DNA from: Pandoraea anhela
GTDB lineage: Bacteria; Pseudomonadota; Gammaproteobacteria; Burkholderiales; Burkholderiaceae
Length of the DNA: 64,000 bases
NCBI RefSeq assembly: GCF_902459655.1
Contig: NZ_CABPSB010000006.1
Coordinates: 1 to 64,000 of the forward strand
Direction: 5' to 3'
Shown here: piece by piece, positions 54,566 to 61,147 of the stretch
Layout of the letters: every line of letters starts with the position of its first letter
How positions within the stretch are numbered: position 1 is the stretch's first letter
Program-made: the position numbers and the translations under genes
Notes under the pieces: generated by a model
Seen by the model: only the letters and a program-made list of their open reading frames with translations
Database searches by the model: none
Told to the model about the DNA's origin: nothing

Positions 54566-56038
54566 ATGACCGAACCTGCTGCACCGGAGACTTCCCCCGC
54601 ATCTCATACAGCGACCGCTGCCGGGCGCATGCGTCGCGAACGTCTGCGGGCCCGCCTGAAGGCGCTCGCCGGGTATGCCGCCTACGCGGCCCTTGCCTTC
54701 GCCCTGTGGGCCGCCAGCCATGGCAGCGCCACACTCGGATTGACGCCGACGGCCGCGCAGGCCGCCGTGCTCGTGCTTTTCACGATCGGTGCATGGGCGT
54801 TCGGATGGTTTCCCGAACCCGTCACGACCCTCACCTTCTTTCTGTTCGCCGTGCTGCTTCACGTCGCGAAGCCGGAGGTGATCTTCGCCGGCTTTCACTC
54901 GGCTGCGTGGTGGCTCGTCTTCGGCGGCGCCGTCACCGGACTCGCCGTTCGCACCACCGGTCTGGGATCGCGTCTGGCATCGACGGTCTTCGCACTCAAG
55001 CGCCCGACCTACCCGCGCTATGTGGCCTCCGTGCTGATCGCCAGCGTCGGGCTCGCGTTCGTCATGCCGTCCACGACCGGCCGCATTCTGCTCCTGATTC
55101 CCATCGTGCTCGCCCTCGCCGACCGCATCGGTCTCACCGAGGGCCGGCGCGGACGCACCGGTCTCGTCATGATGGTCGCCGCCGCCAGCTACATGCCGCC
55201 GACGACGATCCTGCCGGCCAACATCCCGAACAGCGTGCTGATGGGTGCGGCCGACGCGTTCTACGGCGTGAAGCTGCACTATGCGCCGTACCTGTTACTG
55301 CACTTCCCCATCCTCGGCGCCTTGAAAGCCGTGATCCTCATCTGGGTCGTCTGCCGTCTGTTCCCGGACGACGGCCCGCTCAACGACACCGCGACGACGA
55401 CACCGCCGCCGCTCACAACCGACGCGCGACGCCTGTCCATTCTGCTCGCTCTCGCGCTCGCCGGCTTCGCGACGGACGCATGGCACGGTATCTCACCGGC
55501 GTGGATCTCCGTGGCCGCCGCCATTCTCTGTCTGCTGCCCGCGATTCATATCGTCACACCGAAGACCTTCACCGATCAGATGCAGATCACACCGCTCATC
55601 TACGTCGCGGGTTTCCTCGGCGTTGGCGCCGTGGTCGCAGATACGGGATTGGGGGAAAGGGTGGCGCGCCTTTGTCTGGACGCCGTGGGCATGACGCCCG
55701 GCACGCCGGTCGTCAACGCGGCGTGGCTGATCGCCATCGGGGCGGCCATCGGACTCGTCGCGACCTTGCCCGGTCTGCCGGCGGTGCTCACGCCGCTGGC
55801 GGGACAACTCTCGACGGCGAGCGGCTTGCCGCTCTACACCGTCCTGATGCTGCAAGTGCCCGTGTTCTCGACCGTCCTGCTGCCGTACCAAAGTCCGCCG
55901 ATGATGATCGCCATGCACCTCGGCGGCGTGGGCATGCGCGACGGCACGCGTCTGACCGTCGCCATGACGATCATCACGCTGGTACTGCTCTTGCCGCTGG
56001 ATTACGTTTGGTGGCGCGGGCTAGGCATGCTGCCATAG
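54566..56038 (+). CDS. DASS/SLC13-family anion:Na+ symporter
   Basis: 490 residues. The N-terminal 35 residues are polar, then about 12 membrane segments. DASS-type motifs appear: F-V-M-P-S-T-T-G-R in the first half and, in the second half, T-L-P-G-L-P-A-V-L-T-P with P-Y-Q-S-P-P-M-M. The inverted-repeat S-N-T-type sodium clamps are replaced here by S-T-T and Y-Q-S variants, so ion coupling is uncertain. Likely imports a dicarboxylate, sulfate or other anion. Its leader carries the 9-bp repeat. Its end overlaps the convergent LcrR-like gene by 37 bp. Confidence 0.83.
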   Translation: MTEPAAPETSPASHTATAAGRMRRERLRARLKALAGYAAYAALAFALWAASHGSATLGLTPTAAQAAVLVLFTIGAWAFGWFPEPVTTLTFFLFAVLLHVAKPEVIFAGFHSAAWWLVFGGAVTGLAVRTTGLGSRLASTVFALKRPTYPRYVASVLIASVGLAFVMPSTTGRILLLIPIVLALADRIGLTEGRRGRTGLVMMVAAASYMPPTTILPANIPNSVLMGAADAFYGVKLHYAPYLLLHFPILGALKAVILIWVVCRLFPDDGPLNDTATTTPPPLTTDARRLSILLALALAGFATDAWHGISPAWISVAAAILCLLPAIHIVTPKTFTDQMQITPLIYVAGFLGVGAVVADTGLGERVARLCLDAVGMTPGTPVVNAAWLIAIGAAIGLVATLPGLPAVLTPLAGQLSTASGLPLYTVLMLQVPVFSTVLLPYQSPPMMIAMHLGGVGMRDGTRLTVAMTIITLVLLLPLDYVWWRGLGMLP

Positions 56039-56511
56039 GCCGCCATCGAGGCGGATGCGCCACACGTCGTCATGCGACGCGTGGGCACGCCATTCGGATC
56101 GCGACAGAACACGAGCCAGCGGTCGCCGTCCTCCTCGCGCCAGAAGGCCCCCTCGCGCTCAAGGATCGCGCCGAGCCGCAGCCGCATATCGCGACGCCTC
56201 GGGTCGCTCACCCCCGGCAGGATCATCCCGCGCACGTAGCTCAGATGCGGGACGGTGCGCAACAACGTGCGGATCAGCTGGCAGAAGCGCCGCACGGCAT
56301 GTTCGTTCGACCGCGCGCCGGGGTCGAGCCGAAAATCGGTGATCGTCAGCACATAGCCGGCGGTGAGTTTTTCCAGACGATGGCAAAGGGACAACTCGCC
56401 ATTCTCGACGCGTTGTCCCATCGTGATGTGCATGCGTTCGCAGACCTCCGCGCGCGCCGTGAAACGGTGAGTTCTGAAAAATGCCGCAACGGCGCGCTCG
56501 CAGACTGTCAT
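56002..56511 (-). CDS. LcrR/PcrR-like type III secretion regulator-chaperone
   Basis: 169 residues. It has the size and pattern of the LcrR family of type III systems: a central L-T-I-T-D-F-R/helical segment, V-R-R-F-C-Q-L-I-R-T-L-L, S-Y-V-R-G-M-I-L and a terminal R-L-R-L-G-A-I-L-E-R-E-G-A-F-W. The match is by eye, not a search. It begins 4 bp after the stop of the sctB-like gene, so it is translationally coupled and last in the translocon operon. In Yersinia and Pseudomonas LcrR/PcrR genes lie next to the translocator genes as well. The C-terminal 25 residues are low in complexity and overlap the transporter gene. Confidence 0.6.
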   Translation of the reverse strand: MTVCERAVAAFFRTHRFTARAEVCERMHITMGQRVENGELSLCHRLEKLTAGYVLTITDFRLDPGARSNEHAVRRFCQLIRTLLRTVPHLSYVRGMILPGVSDPRRRDMRLRLGAILEREGAFWREEDGDRWLVFCRDPNGVPTRRMTTCGASASMAAYGSMPSPRHQT

Positions 56512-56515
56512 GGGC

Positions 56516-57208
56516 TTAGCGAATGATGTCGTACATTTTCGTGACTTGCTGGCCGATCATGCCGTACATCGAACGCGACACATCCCGGATATCGGCACTC
56601 GTGGCGTCGATCCGCTGACGCAGGCGCTCGTTGGTGCGCCGTGTCTCCTCGGAGAGCGACATCTCGAATTCGCCGAGCACGTCGTTATCCCGTCCGGCCA
56701 GCGCATCGTCGTTGGAGACGACATCGAAGGGCGACTTCACGAACTGACTCACGCCCTTGGTCGTCTCGCCCACTGCCGTGCCGACGACACGCAGCTTGCC
56801 CAGCTCACTGCCGAAACCCGCCGCGCCCGAGCCCACGCCGCCGACCAGCGAAAAGCTGCCGGAGACGATGCCCCCGATCGCCGACATCAGCCCCGAGTGG
56901 TAATGCGACCGGTTCGCGTTGTACTTCTCGGCACGCGCCGTCAGCCCGCGCTCGAACACCATGGCGTCGTGGCGCGTGCGGTACGCCTGATCGGTGTTGC
57001 GCTCCGCGACCCGCATGGCGAGAAACAGCGCGATGAGCGTCTGTGCCGATTGCAGTCCGTCGACCTTCTCGCGAATGCGCGACACCACGCCCGAGGGTTC
57101 CGCTCCCGCCCCACGGGCTGGCGCACGGTGTGGCGCGTCGAGCGCAGCGCCTTCGTCTGCACCGCGAGGGGTGAGAACTGCCGGCGCGCAACGCATTGTC
57201 ATCGTCAT
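56516..57208 (-). CDS. sctB: Type III secretion translocator SctB (YopD/BopD/IpaC class)
   Basis: 230 residues from the ATG at 57208, with GGAG eight bases upstream. One hydrophobic segment (S-A-I-G-G-I-V-S-G-S-F-S-L-V-G-G-V, residues about 105-130) lies in an otherwise polar helical protein, with a C-terminal amphipathic coil (E-E-T-R-R-T-N-E-R-L-R-Q-R-I-D). This is the layout of the minor translocator that joins SctE in the host-membrane pore. Shorter than YopD/BopD (about 300), which may reflect lineage. Assignment rests on position after SctE, size and hydrophobic pattern. Confidence 0.75.
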   Translation of the reverse strand: MTMTMRCAPAVLTPRGADEGAALDAPHRAPARGAGAEPSGVVSRIREKVDGLQSAQTLIALFLAMRVAERNTDQAYRTRHDAMVFERGLTARAEKYNANRSHYHSGLMSAIGGIVSGSFSLVGGVGSGAAGFGSELGKLRVVGTAVGETTKGVSQFVKSPFDVVSNDDALAGRDNDVLGEFEMSLSEETRRTNERLRQRIDATSADIRDVSRSMYGMIGQQVTKMYDIIR

Positions 57209-57250
57209 ATCCTGCTCCAGAAGTGTTCGGCGCGATGCTTTTCGCGCCGG

Positions 57251-57294
57251 GGTTTCGATAAGGTCTCGATAAGGTCTCGATAAGGTTTCGATAA
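57251..57294. repeat. Four 11-bp tandem repeats between sctE and sctB
   Basis: Units ggtttcgataa, ggtctcgataa, ggtctcgataa and ggtttcgataa run head to tail. A second set with 11-bp spacing (cacgtccggta, catgtccggca, cacgtcctgtg) lies at about 57366-57398. Both fall in the 217-bp gap inside an otherwise tightly packed operon. Confidence 0.85.
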
Positions 57295-57425
57295 GGATCC
57301 GAATAAAGCACCGATCGTGCGAGGCCGGCGGGTGCGCACTGAGCATGTCCTGAGCGCATCCCTTGCACGTCCGGTACATGTCCGGCACACGTCCTGTGAG
57401 TGTGTCGTGGCTGTGCTGTGGCGCC

Positions 57426-58934
57426 TCATGCGCGCGCCGACGACGCCGCCATACGGATGCGCATCTCGCCGGTTTTCTGCACCTGCTCGCCGGCAGAGAC
57501 CGCCATGTCGGTTTGCATGCCGACCAGCGTCTCCATGCGCCGGGCCGTTTGCTTCTTGTCGTCGCCGTTCATCTGCATGAGCATCTGCAACCACACCATG
57601 TCGACGGACAGATCGCGCGCCTCGTTCTGCAACTTCGCACGTTGCACGCCGACGATGCCCTGCCCCAACGCATTGGCCCCGGCAAACGTTCCGCGCACCG
57701 CATGGGAGAGCGACCACGAACCCCGGGCCAATGCGAAGTAGCCCTGCGTGTTCATGCGCGACGTGAACGAACGGGTCAGCCCCTTCGCGCTCACCCCTTT
57801 GCCTCGTGCGACCTGCTTCGCCGCCGTTTTGGCAACCTTGTCGAAGGCGCGCGCCGCCATCTTCTCGATCATCTGCTGCGTGAACTGCTCGGCCATGCGG
57901 TTGAAACCCGCCTTTGCCAACCGACGCGCACTCTGCGTGCCGCTCTGAAGCAACGATCGGCCTACACGCTTGCCGACCCCGTTGCCGACCACGTAACCGA
58001 TTTCGGCAACGACTCTCGTCCTGATCGCCGCGACGGCCGCCTTGTCGCCCGACTTCACCGCCTGCTCCAGCGCCTGCGCGGCGCCCGCCTTGAACACGCG
58101 ACTGGCCGCCTTGGTGGTCGCGCGCTTGGCGAGGAAGCCTTTCACCGACGTACCGAACCCGACGGCCATGCCAAGCATCTGAAAGGCCAGTTGAGCGTGT
58201 CCCCACTTGGCCGCTTCCTTCTCGTGATAAACGGCGTTTTTCGGATCCGTCAGCGCCATCGTCTTGTGATACGCCGCGCCCAATCCGGCGATACCGGCGC
58301 CCACATCGGCCACGCCGCCCGCAATCATCATGGGGTTCATGGTCAGCACGCCCGTCACCACCTTGACCGCGCCGACCACGACATCGACCGCAGCGATCAG
58401 CCAGTCGAACACCACGCCGAAAATGCCGCCCTTGCGGGCCTGATTCGCATCCTCGGTTTTCGCGTCCATCTGCTCGCGATACTTCTGGATGTCTTCCTGA
58501 CGCAGTTTGTCCTGCCGCTCCGCCAGCAATTCCAACGCGCGCTGCGTCGACTTCGCCGTATCCCCCAGCGAGTCCATGGCGATCATCGACGCCATCATGG
58601 CGAGCGTCGACGGATCGACATTTTCCAACGCGGCGAGGTCCGAACGGTTCGCGGCATTCGAGGCGCGCAACGCACGCTCGGCCAGTCCGCTGCCCATCGC
58701 CAGCAAGCGATCGAGCATGCGCGAGAAAGCATCGTTGGCGTCGCGCCAGTCGGCGCCGGCCGGTGTGTCCGGCGCGAAGTCTTCGCTGCCGAGGCAGTCC
58801 GGTCGCTGACGATGCGAGCGCGCCGCCCCGACCGCTTCGGGCGTGGCGTGTGTTCCGTTCGCCGCCGACGCGGGATCGTCGTCACGGGTCGCAATCGGTG
58901 CGTAGCCCGTACCTATGGATTGAATGACTGTCAT
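57426..58934 (-). CDS. sctE: Type III secretion translocator SctE (YopB/BopB/IpaB class)
   Basis: 502 residues. A helical N-terminal third with Ala/Asp-rich coil (L-L-A-E-R-Q-D-K-L-R-Q-E-D-I-Q-K) is followed by two hydrophobic helices with a short turn (F-D-W-L-I-A-A-V-D-V-V-V-G-A-V, then P-M-M-I-A-G-G-V-A-D-V-G-A-G), residues about 170-225. That is the membrane hairpin of major translocators. A long amphipathic C-terminus follows. Inserts in the host membrane with SctB to form the translocation pore. The start codon overlaps the chaperone stop by 4 nt. No signal peptide, as expected for a type III substrate. Confidence 0.85.
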   Translation of the reverse strand: MTVIQSIGTGYAPIATRDDDPASAANGTHATPEAVGAARSHRQRPDCLGSEDFAPDTPAGADWRDANDAFSRMLDRLLAMGSGLAERALRASNAANRSDLAALENVDPSTLAMMASMIAMDSLGDTAKSTQRALELLAERQDKLRQEDIQKYREQMDAKTEDANQARKGGIFGVVFDWLIAAVDVVVGAVKVVTGVLTMNPMMIAGGVADVGAGIAGLGAAYHKTMALTDPKNAVYHEKEAAKWGHAQLAFQMLGMAVGFGTSVKGFLAKRATTKAASRVFKAGAAQALEQAVKSGDKAAVAAIRTRVVAEIGYVVGNGVGKRVGRSLLQSGTQSARRLAKAGFNRMAEQFTQQMIEKMAARAFDKVAKTAAKQVARGKGVSAKGLTRSFTSRMNTQGYFALARGSWSLSHAVRGTFAGANALGQGIVGVQRAKLQNEARDLSVDMVWLQMLMQMNGDDKKQTARRMETLVGMQTDMAVSAGEQVQKTGEMRIRMAASSARA

Positions 58935-59500
58935 GATCGAATCGGTTTTGAGTCGCTATTGAGTGCGTCGCACCGGGCTCGGGCCGAGCGCGCGAGTGGT
59001 TCGTGCTGAGGCGACCGGGCGCAAATGCGCAAGGTGGCGCGATACGCCCGAGCGGCGAATGTCGGATTGCCCATGTGCTCGTAGCTGATACCCGCGAGAT
59101 ATGGTGGGCGCGGATCGGACGCGCAGATCACGCCGGCCTTCGCAAAGCACGGCAACGCCTGCTCGTGCTGTCCGAGGCGCTGGTAGCAAAGTCCCAGTCC
59201 GAACCAGTCGTCGAACGACCATTGGTCGAGCGTCGCGAGAATGAAATACACCCGCTGCGCGCCGGCAATGTGTCCCTGTGCGAAGCGCTGCGCGGCATAC
59301 GCCCGTACGCTCGCGAGATCGGCCTCGTCCAGATCGGCCAGCATGCGCAACGCGCCACCGCGTTCGAAGAAGCGCGTGAGAATGGCGGGCGCGTCCTCCA
59401 TGCGTTCCACGCCCTCCATTCCCTCCATGCCCTGCGCCTGCTGCACGCGCGCGCCGGTGAATTCGCTCGGCTCGATATCCGGGACCATTGGCGTGCTCAC
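58931..59500 (-). CDS. sycD: Type III translocator chaperone, SycD/LcrH/BcrH class (TPR)
   Basis: 189 residues from a GTG at 59500, which overlaps the upstream stop by 4 nt; an ATG at 59488 is the alternative. TPR helices are visible at residues about 65-165 (D-W-F-G-L-G-L-C-Y-Q-R-L-G-Q-H-E-Q-A, then Y-L-A-G-I-S-Y-E-H-M-G-N). Class II chaperones hold the two translocators in the cytoplasm before secretion; the gene directly precedes sctE, as is usual. An M-E-G-M-E-G-V-E-R-M-E-D stretch encoded by near-repeats precedes the TPR region and is unusual. Confidence 0.85.
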   Translation of the reverse strand: MSTPMVPDIEPSEFTGARVQQAQGMEGMEGVERMEDAPAILTRFFERGGALRMLADLDEADLASVRAYAAQRFAQGHIAGAQRVYFILATLDQWSFDDWFGLGLCYQRLGQHEQALPCFAKAGVICASDPRPPYLAGISYEHMGNPTFAARAYRATLRICARSPQHEPLARSARARCDALNSDSKPIRS

Positions 59501-60141
59501 GTGCGCATCGACCCGTTGATCTGGTTGAGCTGCGAGCCCTGCGACGAGTAGATCGTGTTCACGAGCGTCGACGCGCCGTTGTATTCCTGAAGCTTTTTGT
59601 TGATCTTGATCTGATCGACGGTGCGGCTGTCTGACGCCTTCTCGACGAACCCTTCGGCCGCCGCCTTGAGCGAGCGAAGGTTCGCGGCGGTGTACTCGTT
59701 GTTGCCGCCGGTCGGCGCCTGATAGCCGCTCTCGCCCAGACGCTTCGTGCGGTTCTCCCACTGCATCAACGTCTTCTTCGTCCCGTTCTGGTCGACGGAA
59801 ATCTCGATGTTGTGCTTGTCGAAGAAGCCACGAATGCCGTCGCCGAGACCGACCTTCTTCGCGGTATCCGAGCCGATTTCGTTGATCAGCGATTCGATCT
59901 GGTTGGCGGCGTCGCGCGCTTCCTGCCCTTCCTTCTGGCGGCTTTGCATCTCCTGAATCATGTTCTGCGCTTCGCCGTTGTTCATCTCCATCATCAGCAT
60001 CGCGTACGCGGCGAGCGTGCCGTGGAAATCGAGTTTTTCGATGACGCCACCGATGGAGACATCACGAATCAGTCCGCCCATGAGCGGGCTATTGAATGAA
60101 GCCGTACGCAGCGATGTGTTCGTGCCGGAAACAAGGGTCAT
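59497..60141 (-). CDS. Type III needle-tip/filament protein (Bsp22/EspA-like)
   Basis: 214 residues from the ATG at 60141, with AGGAA upstream. Helical, Gln/Asn/Ser-rich protein without signal peptide. The C-terminal 40 residues (T-V-D-Q-I-K-I-N-K-K-L-Q-E-Y-N, then L-V-N-T-I-Y-S-S-Q-G) form a coiled-coil of the kind used by EspA and Bordetella Bsp22 to build the tip filament. The size is close to Bsp22 (about 200). Position directly before the SycD chaperone and translocators matches the Bordetella order bsp22-chaperone-bopB-bopD. Assignment from position, size and helix pattern. Confidence 0.7.
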   Translation of the reverse strand: MTLVSGTNTSLRTASFNSPLMGGLIRDVSIGGVIEKLDFHGTLAAYAMLMMEMNNGEAQNMIQEMQSRQKEGQEARDAANQIESLINEIGSDTAKKVGLGDGIRGFFDKHNIEISVDQNGTKKTLMQWENRTKRLGESGYQAPTGGNNEYTAANLRSLKAAAEGFVEKASDSRTVDQIKINKKLQEYNGASTLVNTIYSSQGSQLNQINGSMRT

Positions 60142-60206
60142 AACGTTGGGTTCCTGAAAATCGGGGTAAGAGGGAAGAATGAAGCATGCCGGTCGTGCGC
60201 CGGCGA

Positions 60207-60572
60207 TCAAAAGCTGCTCACGATCTTCTTCACGATTTCGCCGAGTTTCGAGACGACCGCGTTGTACAGCGTCAGGGTGTTGTCGTAACGGGTTACGAGA
60301 CGCTTCAGATGAATCTGATCGATCGTGCTCGAGGCATCGGATTCCCGCGCGTCGGCGTTGCGCGCGCGCACGTTTGCAAGCCATGCGTCCGCCTGCCCCT
60401 GTAATGCGCCGAGCTGCGCATCCGCCACGGCGATCGCCGAGAGCATCGGATTGTCGGAAAGCGACGACGGGGACGAACGCGGGGGCGGACGCGATGCGTG
60501 GCTCCATGCACCGGGCGTGACAGCGGCGTCGAAATACGCTCGCGCTATCTGCCCCTGGTTTCGGTAGATCAT
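60207..60572 (-). CDS. Small helical type III-associated protein related to the filament protein's C-terminus
   Basis: 121 residues from the ATG at 60572, with GGGAG six bases upstream. The last 45 residues (S-T-I-D-Q-I-H-L-K-R-L-V-T-R-Y-D-N-T-L-T) resemble the end of the next gene's product (R-T-V-D-Q-I-K-I-N-K-K-L-Q-E-Y-N-G-A-S-T): T-x-D-Q-I, alternating basic residues, a tyrosine and a terminal helix. The N-terminal half is different. It may be a second filament, inner-rod or co-chaperone-like component. 65 bp before the Bsp22-like gene, 13 bp after the coiled-coil gene. Confidence 0.6.
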   Translation of the reverse strand: MIYRNQGQIARAYFDAAVTPGAWSHASRPPPRSSPSSLSDNPMLSAIAVADAQLGALQGQADAWLANVRARNADARESDASSTIDQIHLKRLVTRYDNTLTLYNAVVSKLGEIVKKIVSSF

Positions 60573-60585
60573 GGCCGGCTCCCGA

Positions 60586-61005
60586 TCAGGCGCAGGATCG
60601 GCGCACAATCGGTGCGCGTTGGATCGTGGGAGGCGTGGGAGGCGTGGGAGGCGTGGGGGGTGCGGGGGGTGCCGGGGAAGCGTTCGCGGGCGAATCCGCC
60701 CTCAGCCGCTCGACGCTATGCGCCAGTGCGGCGGACAGGCGACGGATCTCGCGCTCGTCACGGCGAAACGGCTCGCTCTGCACGAGCGCTTCGAGACGCT
60801 CGAGTTTTTCGCGCGCCTGCGGCGTGCCGGCGGCTTCGAGGCGCGCGACCTCGTCGAGCACCGTCTGATACGCCTGCATCTGCCGGTGCAGCTTCTGGCC
60901 GACGCTTCGCATCTCGGCACAGGCACGTTCATACTGCGCGAGCACATCGTCCGCCTCGGCAGACAGGGGAGCGGCTTGGGAAGGTTGTTGCGACGGTTCA
61001 GACAT
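60586..61005 (-). CDS. Coiled-coil protein heading the translocon operon
   Basis: 139 residues from the ATG at 61005, with a GGAGG ribosome site (61017-61013 on the minus strand). The middle (residues about 17-105) is a helical coiled-coil rich in Glu, Arg and Gln. The C-terminal tail is a Pro-rich repeat (P-P-A-P-P-T-P-P-T-P-P) encoded by 9-bp tandem repeats. No family was recognised with confidence. Position suggests a tip-protein chaperone or LcrG-like regulator. First gene of the island, 220 bp from the end of the oxoprolinase gene. Confidence 0.6.
   Translation of the reverse strand: MSEPSQQPSQAAPLSAEADDVLAQYERACAEMRSVGQKLHRQMQAYQTVLDEVARLEAAGTPQAREKLERLEALVQSEPFRRDEREIRRLSAALAHSVERLRADSPANASPAPPAPPTPPTPPTPPTIQRAPIVRRSCA
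60627..60662. repeat. 9-bp tandem repeat coding for a Pro-rich tail
   Basis: Units gtgggaggc (three near-perfect copies), then degenerate ggggggtgc-type units. They encode P-P-T-P-P-T-P-P on the minus strand. Confidence 0.8.
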
Positions 61006-61147
61006 GAAAACGCCTCCGTACGTTGCGGTCAGTCAATCGAGACATGTCGCATCGTACGGAGGCGTTGGAGACGCGCCTTTGCAAAGCCCGCTATCCCTTC
61101 CGGGAACCGGTCCTGCTTCAGTCATTTCCCAGTAACGCAGAGGTCAC

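What the first reader, a model, noticed from the sequence alone, without database searches (positions are those of the whole stretch)
56002..61005. Isolated type III secretion translocon island
Seven minus-strand genes make a compact set: coiled-coil protein, small helical protein, Bsp22/EspA-like filament protein, SycD chaperone, SctE, SctB and LcrR-like protein. Most are joined by 4-nt overlaps or gaps of a few bases. The order filament-chaperone-SctE-SctB matches the Bordetella bsc locus (established knowledge). No ATPase, ring, export or needle gene lies within the flanks, which are a transporter and an oxoprolinase. Either the apparatus is encoded elsewhere, or the set is a detached host-membrane pore module.
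Basis: partly seen in the sequence, partly recalled or inferred. Interest (0 to 1): 0.72.

Follow-up and report, generated by a model that had tools for sequence, protein, structure and literature searches.

The report
Translocon detached from its injection machine
In Pandoraea bacteria the genes for the host-touching tip of a Salmonella SPI-2-like protein injection machine sit over a megabase away from the genes for the machine itself, and related species appear to have swapped whole versions of that tip while keeping the same machine.

Summary
The island is real. Profiles place it with the SPI-2 (Ssa-Esc) translocon: coil protein in the SseA position, two EspA/SseB-like proteins (one shortened here), SscA-type chaperone, SseC-type SctE, SseD-type SctB, and SseE rather than LcrR. 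The matching apparatus is on another contig without translocators. Of 32 genus genomes, 28 carry a translocon at this site and an SPI-2-type apparatus locus; 27 keep full SctV and one has an internal apparatus deletion; 4 have neither. In nine genomes of known contig length the two lie 1.14-1.36 Mb apart. In other genera they are mostly one locus. New here: (1) three species carry, between their own promoter region and SseE, a cassette whose tree conflicts with the flanks, while the one apparatus compared looks unchanged; (2) a hairpin masks the Shine-Dalgarno of the operon's first gene in 26 of 28 islands, too stable on prediction to be a thermometer. A pore module without a machine is unlikely. 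New variant of a known kind.

The parts
61076..61132 (-). Conserved promoter-region footprint (CTGGGAAATGACTGAAG ... CCGGAAGGG ... CTTTGCAAAGG)
   Evidence: aligned in 17 Pandoraea leaders; first box occurs once in the genome at up to 2 mismatches; no convincing counterpart in ten apparatus loci, several of them fetched only in part
61009..61066 (-). Leader hairpin, 14-bp outer stem, masking the Shine-Dalgarno (61013-61020) of the first gene
60586..61005 (-). p1: coiled-coil protein in the SseA position (putative filament chaperone)
   Evidence: no convincing family hit; hhalign 93.1%, E 3.2e-7 to coil proteins at the same place in G083 (a Burkholderiaceae genome), Pseudomonas farris and Rouxiella
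60207..60572 (-). p2: second EspA/SseB-like protein, central part missing in this copy (121 aa; 161-185 aa in ten of the eleven relatives aligned, 133 aa in P. nosoerga)
   Evidence: model of a full-length relative aligns best to EspA filaments
59497..60141 (-). SseB/EspA-like filament protein
   Evidence: Pfam EspA 3.3e-11, NCBIfam SseB 7.5e-13
58931..59488 (-). SscA/SycD-type translocator chaperone
   Evidence: LcrH_SycD 4.6e-27, SscA 1.2e-24
57426..58934 (-). SctE (SseC-like large translocator)
   Evidence: Pfam SseC 1.7e-31; NCBIfam PRK15362 8.9e-76; profile hit to AopB 6.2e-10
57251..57296 (.). 11-bp tandem repeat, 4.2 copies, between SctE and SctB
56516..57208 (-). SctB (SseD-like small translocator), start chosen by homology
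   Evidence: NCBIfam SseD 1.4e-12; Pfam SctB2 0.0037
56002..56511 (-). SseE-like protein
   Evidence: NCBIfam SseE 1.2e-21

Best explanation
This is the translocon operon of an SPI-2-type (Ssa-Esc) type III secretion system whose apparatus genes lie at a second fixed chromosomal site. Inferred mechanism: the apparatus at C23 builds the basal body and needle; its gatekeeper and SctV first let out the translocon substrates brought by the island's chaperones (p1 for the EspA-like proteins, SscA for SctE/SctB); the EspA-like proteins extend the needle and SctE/SctB form the pore. Because these contacts are between proteins, the genes need not be neighbours. Detachment lets the translocon evolve apart: at least one Pandoraea lineage carries a cassette (p1 to SctB) of another allele class between its own promoter region and SseE, with an apparatus like that of its kin. 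The operon has its own conserved promoter footprint and a leader hairpin that closes the ribosome site of its first gene, so translation probably needs an opening factor. Shown: gene families, location, co-occurrence, tree conflict, hairpin conservation. Inferred: secretion, pore formation, chaperone pairing, the hairpin's role.
For: Families. Own genome: SPI-2-type apparatus at C23:4-25.7 kb, by profile SctF, I, J, L, W, D, C, V, N, R, S, T, U and an SsrB-like regulator, with SctK and SctQ named by position only; EspA Pfam hits only the island, SseC Pfam hits the island and the SPI-1-type locus. Census of 32 genus genomes: 26 with SctE at 58-100% identity, 2 more (G132, G140) with a divergent translocon between the same flanks, and an apparatus locus in the same 28; neither in G010, G048, G072, G137. 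Same island flanks in 28 of 28 (transporter not found in two) and same left flank of the apparatus in the 26 of 28 looked at (only partly matched in G140). In G062 only this SctV and the presumed flagellar one were found (8 of 11 candidates scored). Named loci: 16 of 16 Pandoraea have no apparatus gene in the fetched stretch; 19 of 24 others have at least four. SctV and SctE trees put Pandoraea in one clade each, near the same relatives. Empty apparatus site in the 3 of 4 lacking genomes examined. Exchange. Hairpin.
Against: No expression, secretion or pore data. The island's promoter footprint has no counterpart at the apparatus, so co-regulation is not shown. G121 (probably P. aquatica) keeps the translocon though its apparatus lost SctD, SctC, the regulator, SctV and SctN. 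No NCBIfam cut-off is reached by the seven products. The two groups used in the tree-conflict tests were named after identities had been seen, so their p-values are descriptive; that the apparatus did not follow the exchange rests on one genome of the exchanged group (G082). SctE trees hold long branches (G132, G140), whose place is unsure, and the wider SctE group has only 83/69 support. In the hairpin's shuffle control two of five measures are not above chance (176 and 391 of 500 shuffles as high).
Confidence: 0.85

Rival explanations
1. The island is a self-standing membrane-pore module that works without a type III machine.
For: No apparatus gene near it in 16 of 16 named loci; G121 (probably P. 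aquatica) keeps it with a broken apparatus.
Against: Presence agrees with the SPI-2-type apparatus locus in 32 of 32 genus genomes (28 both, 4 neither); SycD-type chaperone and EspA-like filament proteins belong to type III export.
Confidence: 0.04
2. The island serves one of the other type III systems of the cell (SPI-1 type on C2, the HrpD6-bearing one on C1).
For: No SseC-family match was found at the C1 system.
Against: C2 has its own SipD-, SipC- and SctE-like genes; in G062, which has the island, only the SPI-2-type and the presumed flagellar SctV were found (8 of 11 candidates scored); translocon families match SPI-2.
Confidence: 0.04
3. The translocon classes reflect very fast divergence under selection, not exchange of a cassette.
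For: Salmonella SseC and SseD are reported as differentially evolved between serovars (PMC2585142, abstract).
Against: SseB+SctE+SctB tree and flank tree conflict with 100/100 support on both sides; DNA identity to P. commovens falls from 87% to 65% at the SctB/SseE border and returns to 77% and 85% past p1, and over SctB, SctE and SseB it is lower than that to P. terrigena in 12 of 12 bins of 250 bp, though the flanks are not; class II cassettes are 72-80% alike in SseB, SctE and SctB between lineages that are apart by flanks.
Confidence: 0.15
4. The leader inverted repeat is a DNA operator or a terminator of the upstream oxoprolinase gene, not a translational lock.
For: It is a palindrome just after a co-directional gene; in the window a TTTT follows it.
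Against: G-U pairs replace G-C at several positions, which breaks DNA symmetry but keeps RNA pairing; the T run is not conserved; it covers the Shine-Dalgarno.
Confidence: 0.35
5. The island is an ordinary decaying fragment of a broken locus.
For: p2 has lost its central part here and in P. nosoerga; one sampled apparatus is deleted.
Against: p1, SseB, SscA, SctE, SctB and SseE are found in order in 16 of 16 named species and full SctV in 27 of the 28 genomes with the island.
Confidence: 0.04

Closest known systems
Salmonella SPI-2 translocon (sseA-sseB-sscA-sseC-sseD-sseE), Ssa-Esc family
   Same: Profile families and order SseB-SscA-SseC-SseD-SseE, with a coiled-coil gene ahead of the filament gene (the full Salmonella gene order is recalled).
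   Different: In S. arizonae SscA, SctE and SseE lie in one locus with seven apparatus genes (L086); here the set is over 1.1 Mb away, has a second EspA-like gene and a hairpin leader.
SPI-2-type loci of Burkholderiaceae, Pseudomonas, Chromobacterium and Providencia
   Same: Closest relatives of SctE (27-36%) and of SctV (52-60%, Pseudomonas SctV not fetched); tandem EspA-like genes also in Pseudomonas farris and Rouxiella.
   Different: Translocon and apparatus mostly in one locus (about 7-19 kb between SctE and SctV where both lay on one contig).
Chromobacterium violaceum Cpi-1/Cpi-1a split
   Same: A type III system divided between two chromosomal clusters, with a joined arrangement in sister species (PMC5686120, passages).
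   Different: There it is an SPI-1-like system and the needle-complex genes are the detached part; here it is SPI-2 type and the translocon is.
Yersinia lcrF RNA thermometer (PMC3280987, start of abstract in a listing; details recalled)
   Same: A hairpin masking the ribosome site of a gene of type III secretion.
   Different: lcrF encodes a regulator and its hairpin opens at body temperature; here the masked gene opens a translocon operon and the hairpin is predicted to stay closed to 65 C.

Membership tests
SPI-2 (Ssa-Esc) translocon operon | EspA/SseB-type filament protein | tested here: met
   Pfam EspA 43.8 bits over the 23.4 cut-off; NCBIfam SseB 7.5e-13 but under its equivalog cut-off
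SPI-2 (Ssa-Esc) translocon operon | SycD/SscA-type chaperone between filament gene and SctE | tested here: met
   LcrH_SycD 4.6e-27 (94.4 bits against cut-off 104.8), SscA 1.2e-24
SPI-2 (Ssa-Esc) translocon operon | SseC-type SctE | tested here: met
   Pfam 110.5 bits over 30.2; PRK15362 8.9e-76, under its cut-off
SPI-2 (Ssa-Esc) translocon operon | SseD-type SctB | tested here: inconclusive
   NCBIfam SseD 1.4e-12 but below its cut-off; Pfam SctB2 18.1 bits under 26.5; position and order fit
SPI-2 (Ssa-Esc) translocon operon | SseE after SctB | tested here: met
   NF052421 1.2e-21, under its equivalog cut-off
SPI-2 (Ssa-Esc) translocon operon | SseA-type chaperone ahead of the filament gene | tested here: inconclusive
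   no family hit; coil at the same place as SseA; hhalign to other genera's coils 93.1%
SPI-2 (Ssa-Esc) translocon operon | linked to its apparatus (usual arrangement, not a requirement) | tested here: not met
   0 apparatus genes in 16 of 16 named Pandoraea loci; 1.14-1.36 Mb apart in nine genomes of known contig length
SPI-2 (Ssa-Esc) translocon operon | secreted, forms filament and pore | not testable with these tools
   needs secretion and translocation assays
   no LcrR family reported at E up to 1 in Pfam or NCBIfam, SseE instead; that an LcrR model is in these libraries is recalled
Bordetella bsc translocon | Bsp22/BopD/BopB relatives closer than SPI-2 ones | not tested
   no Bordetella locus was fetched; best NCBIfam hits of the translocon genes were SPI-2 models or the general SycD model
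RNA thermometer | hairpin masks the Shine-Dalgarno | tested here: met
   SD unpaired probability 0.000 at 37 C in the window and at most 0.022 in six further leaders; below 0.01 in 0 of 24 rough gene proxies of the window
RNA thermometer | opens near host temperature | tested here: not met
   predicted closed at 65 C in four leaders

The most novel reading that the evidence does not exclude
In Pandoraea the host-contact end of an SPI-2-type injectisome has become a separately inherited and separately controlled genome module: cassettes of filament, chaperone and pore genes are exchanged between species at one fixed site, between a resident promoter and SseE, and fit one and the same apparatus lineage; a translational lock in the leader keeps the exchanged cassette under the host's own timing.
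Probability: 0.45. Interest if true: 0.78.

Novelty: new variant of a known kind. Interest (0 to 1): 0.6.

Why it matters
Type III systems are usually treated as units inherited whole. A genus-wide, stable separation of translocon from apparatus, with evidence that the translocon was exchanged while needle and gatekeeper were not, makes the question of how tightly tip and machine must co-evolve directly testable. It also bears on annotation: a published gene-order comparison reports that the Ssa-Esc cluster of Pandoraea faecigallinarum does not share Salmonella translocons (PMC9967039, passages); the chromosomal apparatus of G109, which one search identifies as that species, has its translocon over a megabase away, though that paper's cluster may be the plasmid one.
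Full report

The machine. The genome (6.05 Mb, 61 contigs) has three SctV genes besides one presumed flagellar on C6. C23:4-25.7 kb holds an SPI-2-type apparatus. By profile: SctF (2.3e-9, just under cut-off), SctI, SctJ, gatekeeper SctW, a SpaK-like chaperone, SctD, SctC, an SsrB-like regulator (PRK15369 1.1e-72), SctV, SctN, SctL, SctR, SctS, SctT and SctU; SctK, SctQ and an SsaH-like gene are named by position only, and an AraC-like regulator stands first. No EspA or SseC match lies there. C2 holds an SPI-1-type system with its own SipD-, SipC- and SctE-like genes; C1 holds one with an HrpD6-type gene.

How general the split is. Of 32 genus genomes searched, 26 have SctE at 58-100% identity to the window's. 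Two more (G132, G140) have a 25-32% identical SctE between the same flanking genes. The other four (G010, G048, G072, G137) have none. So 28 have both loci, 27 of them with full SctV, and 4 have neither. The island lies between the oxoprolinase and the GIY-YIG/beta-lactamase-like genes in 28 of 28; the transporter was not found in two (L065, G120). The apparatus has the same left neighbour in the 26 of 28 looked at (only partly matched in G140; G136 and G138 not looked at). In G048, G072 and G137 the two genes that flank the apparatus are about 80-90 bp apart, an empty site; G010 was not examined for this. Distances, taking the contigs as circles: G133 1.14, G120 1.16, G109 1.22, G128 1.26, G131 1.27, G134 1.28, G139 1.30, G101 1.31, G130 1.36 Mb. 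In G062 no SctV other than this type and the presumed flagellar one was found (8 of 11 first-look candidates scored), so the island has no other known machine to serve there.

Named genomes. A scan of genome contigs with the SctE alignment gave 40 loci, 16 of Pandoraea and 24 of others. All 16 Pandoraea loci have no apparatus gene in the fetched stretch of 10 kb on each side of SctE. Of the 24 others, 19 have four or more apparatus genes in the stretch; of the five with none, four are near contig ends (one of these has SctV about 19 kb away on a contig of the same length), and Parashewanella curva remains open. In the family search of 120 genomes, six of eight genomes of other genera with an SctE hit have SctE and SctV about 9-16 kb apart; in two the contigs are broken.

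One origin. The SctV tree (33 rows) and the SctE tree (38 rows) each put chromosomal Pandoraea in one clade (100/100; 88/95), near Burkholderia, Chromobacterium, Providencia and Winslowiella and away from Salmonella and Yersinia. The wider group has 89/86 support in SctV and only 83/69 in SctE, and G132 and G140 sit on long SctE branches. This fits one SPI-2-type system that came apart before the T3SS-bearing Pandoraea species separated, without proving it.

Cassette exchange. By the flanking genes, P. anapnoica, P. aquatica and P. commovens group with the window's strain, P. capi, P. captiosa, G109 and G101 (100/100). By SseB+SctE+SctB they group with P. nosoerga and G133 (100/100). Forcing either group onto the other data set is rejected (p-AU 8e-12 and 2e-92; the groups were chosen after identities were seen). 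SseE, the last gene, follows the flanks (94/94). The DNA profile against P. commovens falls from 87 to 65% at the SctB/SseE border, stays at 27-78% through the island, and is 77% in the promoter region and 85% beyond; over SctB, SctE and SseB it is lower than the profile against P. terrigena in 12 of 12 bins (42-78% against 55-88%), although P. terrigena is no closer in the flanks. The apparatus does not seem to take part: G082 (probably P. anapnoica) is as close to the window's strain as G109 in needle (81 and 83%), gatekeeper (82 and 81%) and SctC (89 and 85%); this rests on one genome of the exchanged group.

Control of the operon. Upstream of the first gene 17 aligned leaders share a footprint that has no convincing counterpart in ten apparatus loci; its first box occurs once in the genome. 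Between it and the start codon lies an inverted repeat whose 14-bp stem covers the Shine-Dalgarno. RNA folding of the window's leader has z -6.5, and of six relatives -2.8 to -5.4. Over 20 leaders 90% of cells pair against 26-55% when slid; 3 pairs show a change on both sides, and G-U replaces G-C at several positions. The shuffle control is mixed: 17 of 500 shuffles reach the paired percentage, 1 the number of two-sided cells, 3 the covariation score, but 176 the number of two-sided pairs and 391 the number of pair types. Six more census islands show it (G120, G130, G131, G133, G134, G139; Shine-Dalgarno unpaired at most 0.022), so 26 of 28; G132 and G140 do not. None of 24 rough gene proxies of the window has its Shine-Dalgarno closed below 0.01 (the first gene itself is not among them). 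Leaders of two apparatus operons and of the coil genes of G083 and P. farris do not show it; the S. arizonae sseA leader folds weakly (z -2.4). It is predicted closed up to 65 C in four leaders, so a thermometer is unlikely; a protein or RNA that opens it, or translation coupling, is my guess.

Literature. Searches showed no paper that describes this split or exchange, as far as their capped listings go. Pandoraea type III genes are counted or named in PMC10939042, PMC5064223 and PMC8490769 (passages). PMC9967039 says the P. faecigallinarum Ssa-Esc cluster has another gene order and does not share Salmonella translocons (passages). PMC5686120 describes the Cpi-1/Cpi-1a split (passages). PMC3854505 reports SscA as the chaperone of SseC, PMC6168863 the SsaV-SsaL switch from translocon to effectors, and PMC2585142 SseC and SseD among differentially evolved genes (abstracts and outlines).

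Verdict. New variant of a known kind.

Noticed in passing
G000 contigs C23, C2, C1 (L009-L014): The genome carries three type III systems besides the presumed flagellar one: SPI-2 type, SPI-1 type (SipD/SipC-like genes) and one with an HrpD6-type gene.
   Followed up: partly
L052 (P. faecigallinarum plasmid NZ_CP011808.2) and L110 (P. oxalativorans, plasmid NZ_CP011518.2 by length): Plasmid-borne second SPI-2-like systems; the first has an SscA-like gene about 6 kb from SctV.
   Followed up: partly
L117 (G121, probably P. aquatica): Apparatus locus with an internal deletion from mid-gatekeeper to the gene before SctQ while the translocon island is kept.
   Followed up: partly
L107:6307-8064 (G140): A 585-aa protein at the island site whose C-terminal part resembles EspA-like proteins by eye, with a large N-terminal addition; Pfam finds no family.
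   Followed up: partly
L093 and L112 (Parashewanella curva): Translocon and SPI-2-type apparatus on contigs of different length: possibly a second unlinked case, or a contig break.
   Followed up: partly
window 57251-57296: 11-bp tandem repeat in the SctE-SctB gap; a length not divisible by three, upstream of the chosen SctB start.
   Followed up: no
window 56002-56038: The SseE gene and the convergent transporter gene overlap at their 3' ends; a similar overlap shows in G109.
   Followed up: no
L073:7347-9360 and L078:6927-8705: Two EspA-like genes each, with near-identical ends and different middles, in Pseudomonas farris and Rouxiella.
   Followed up: no
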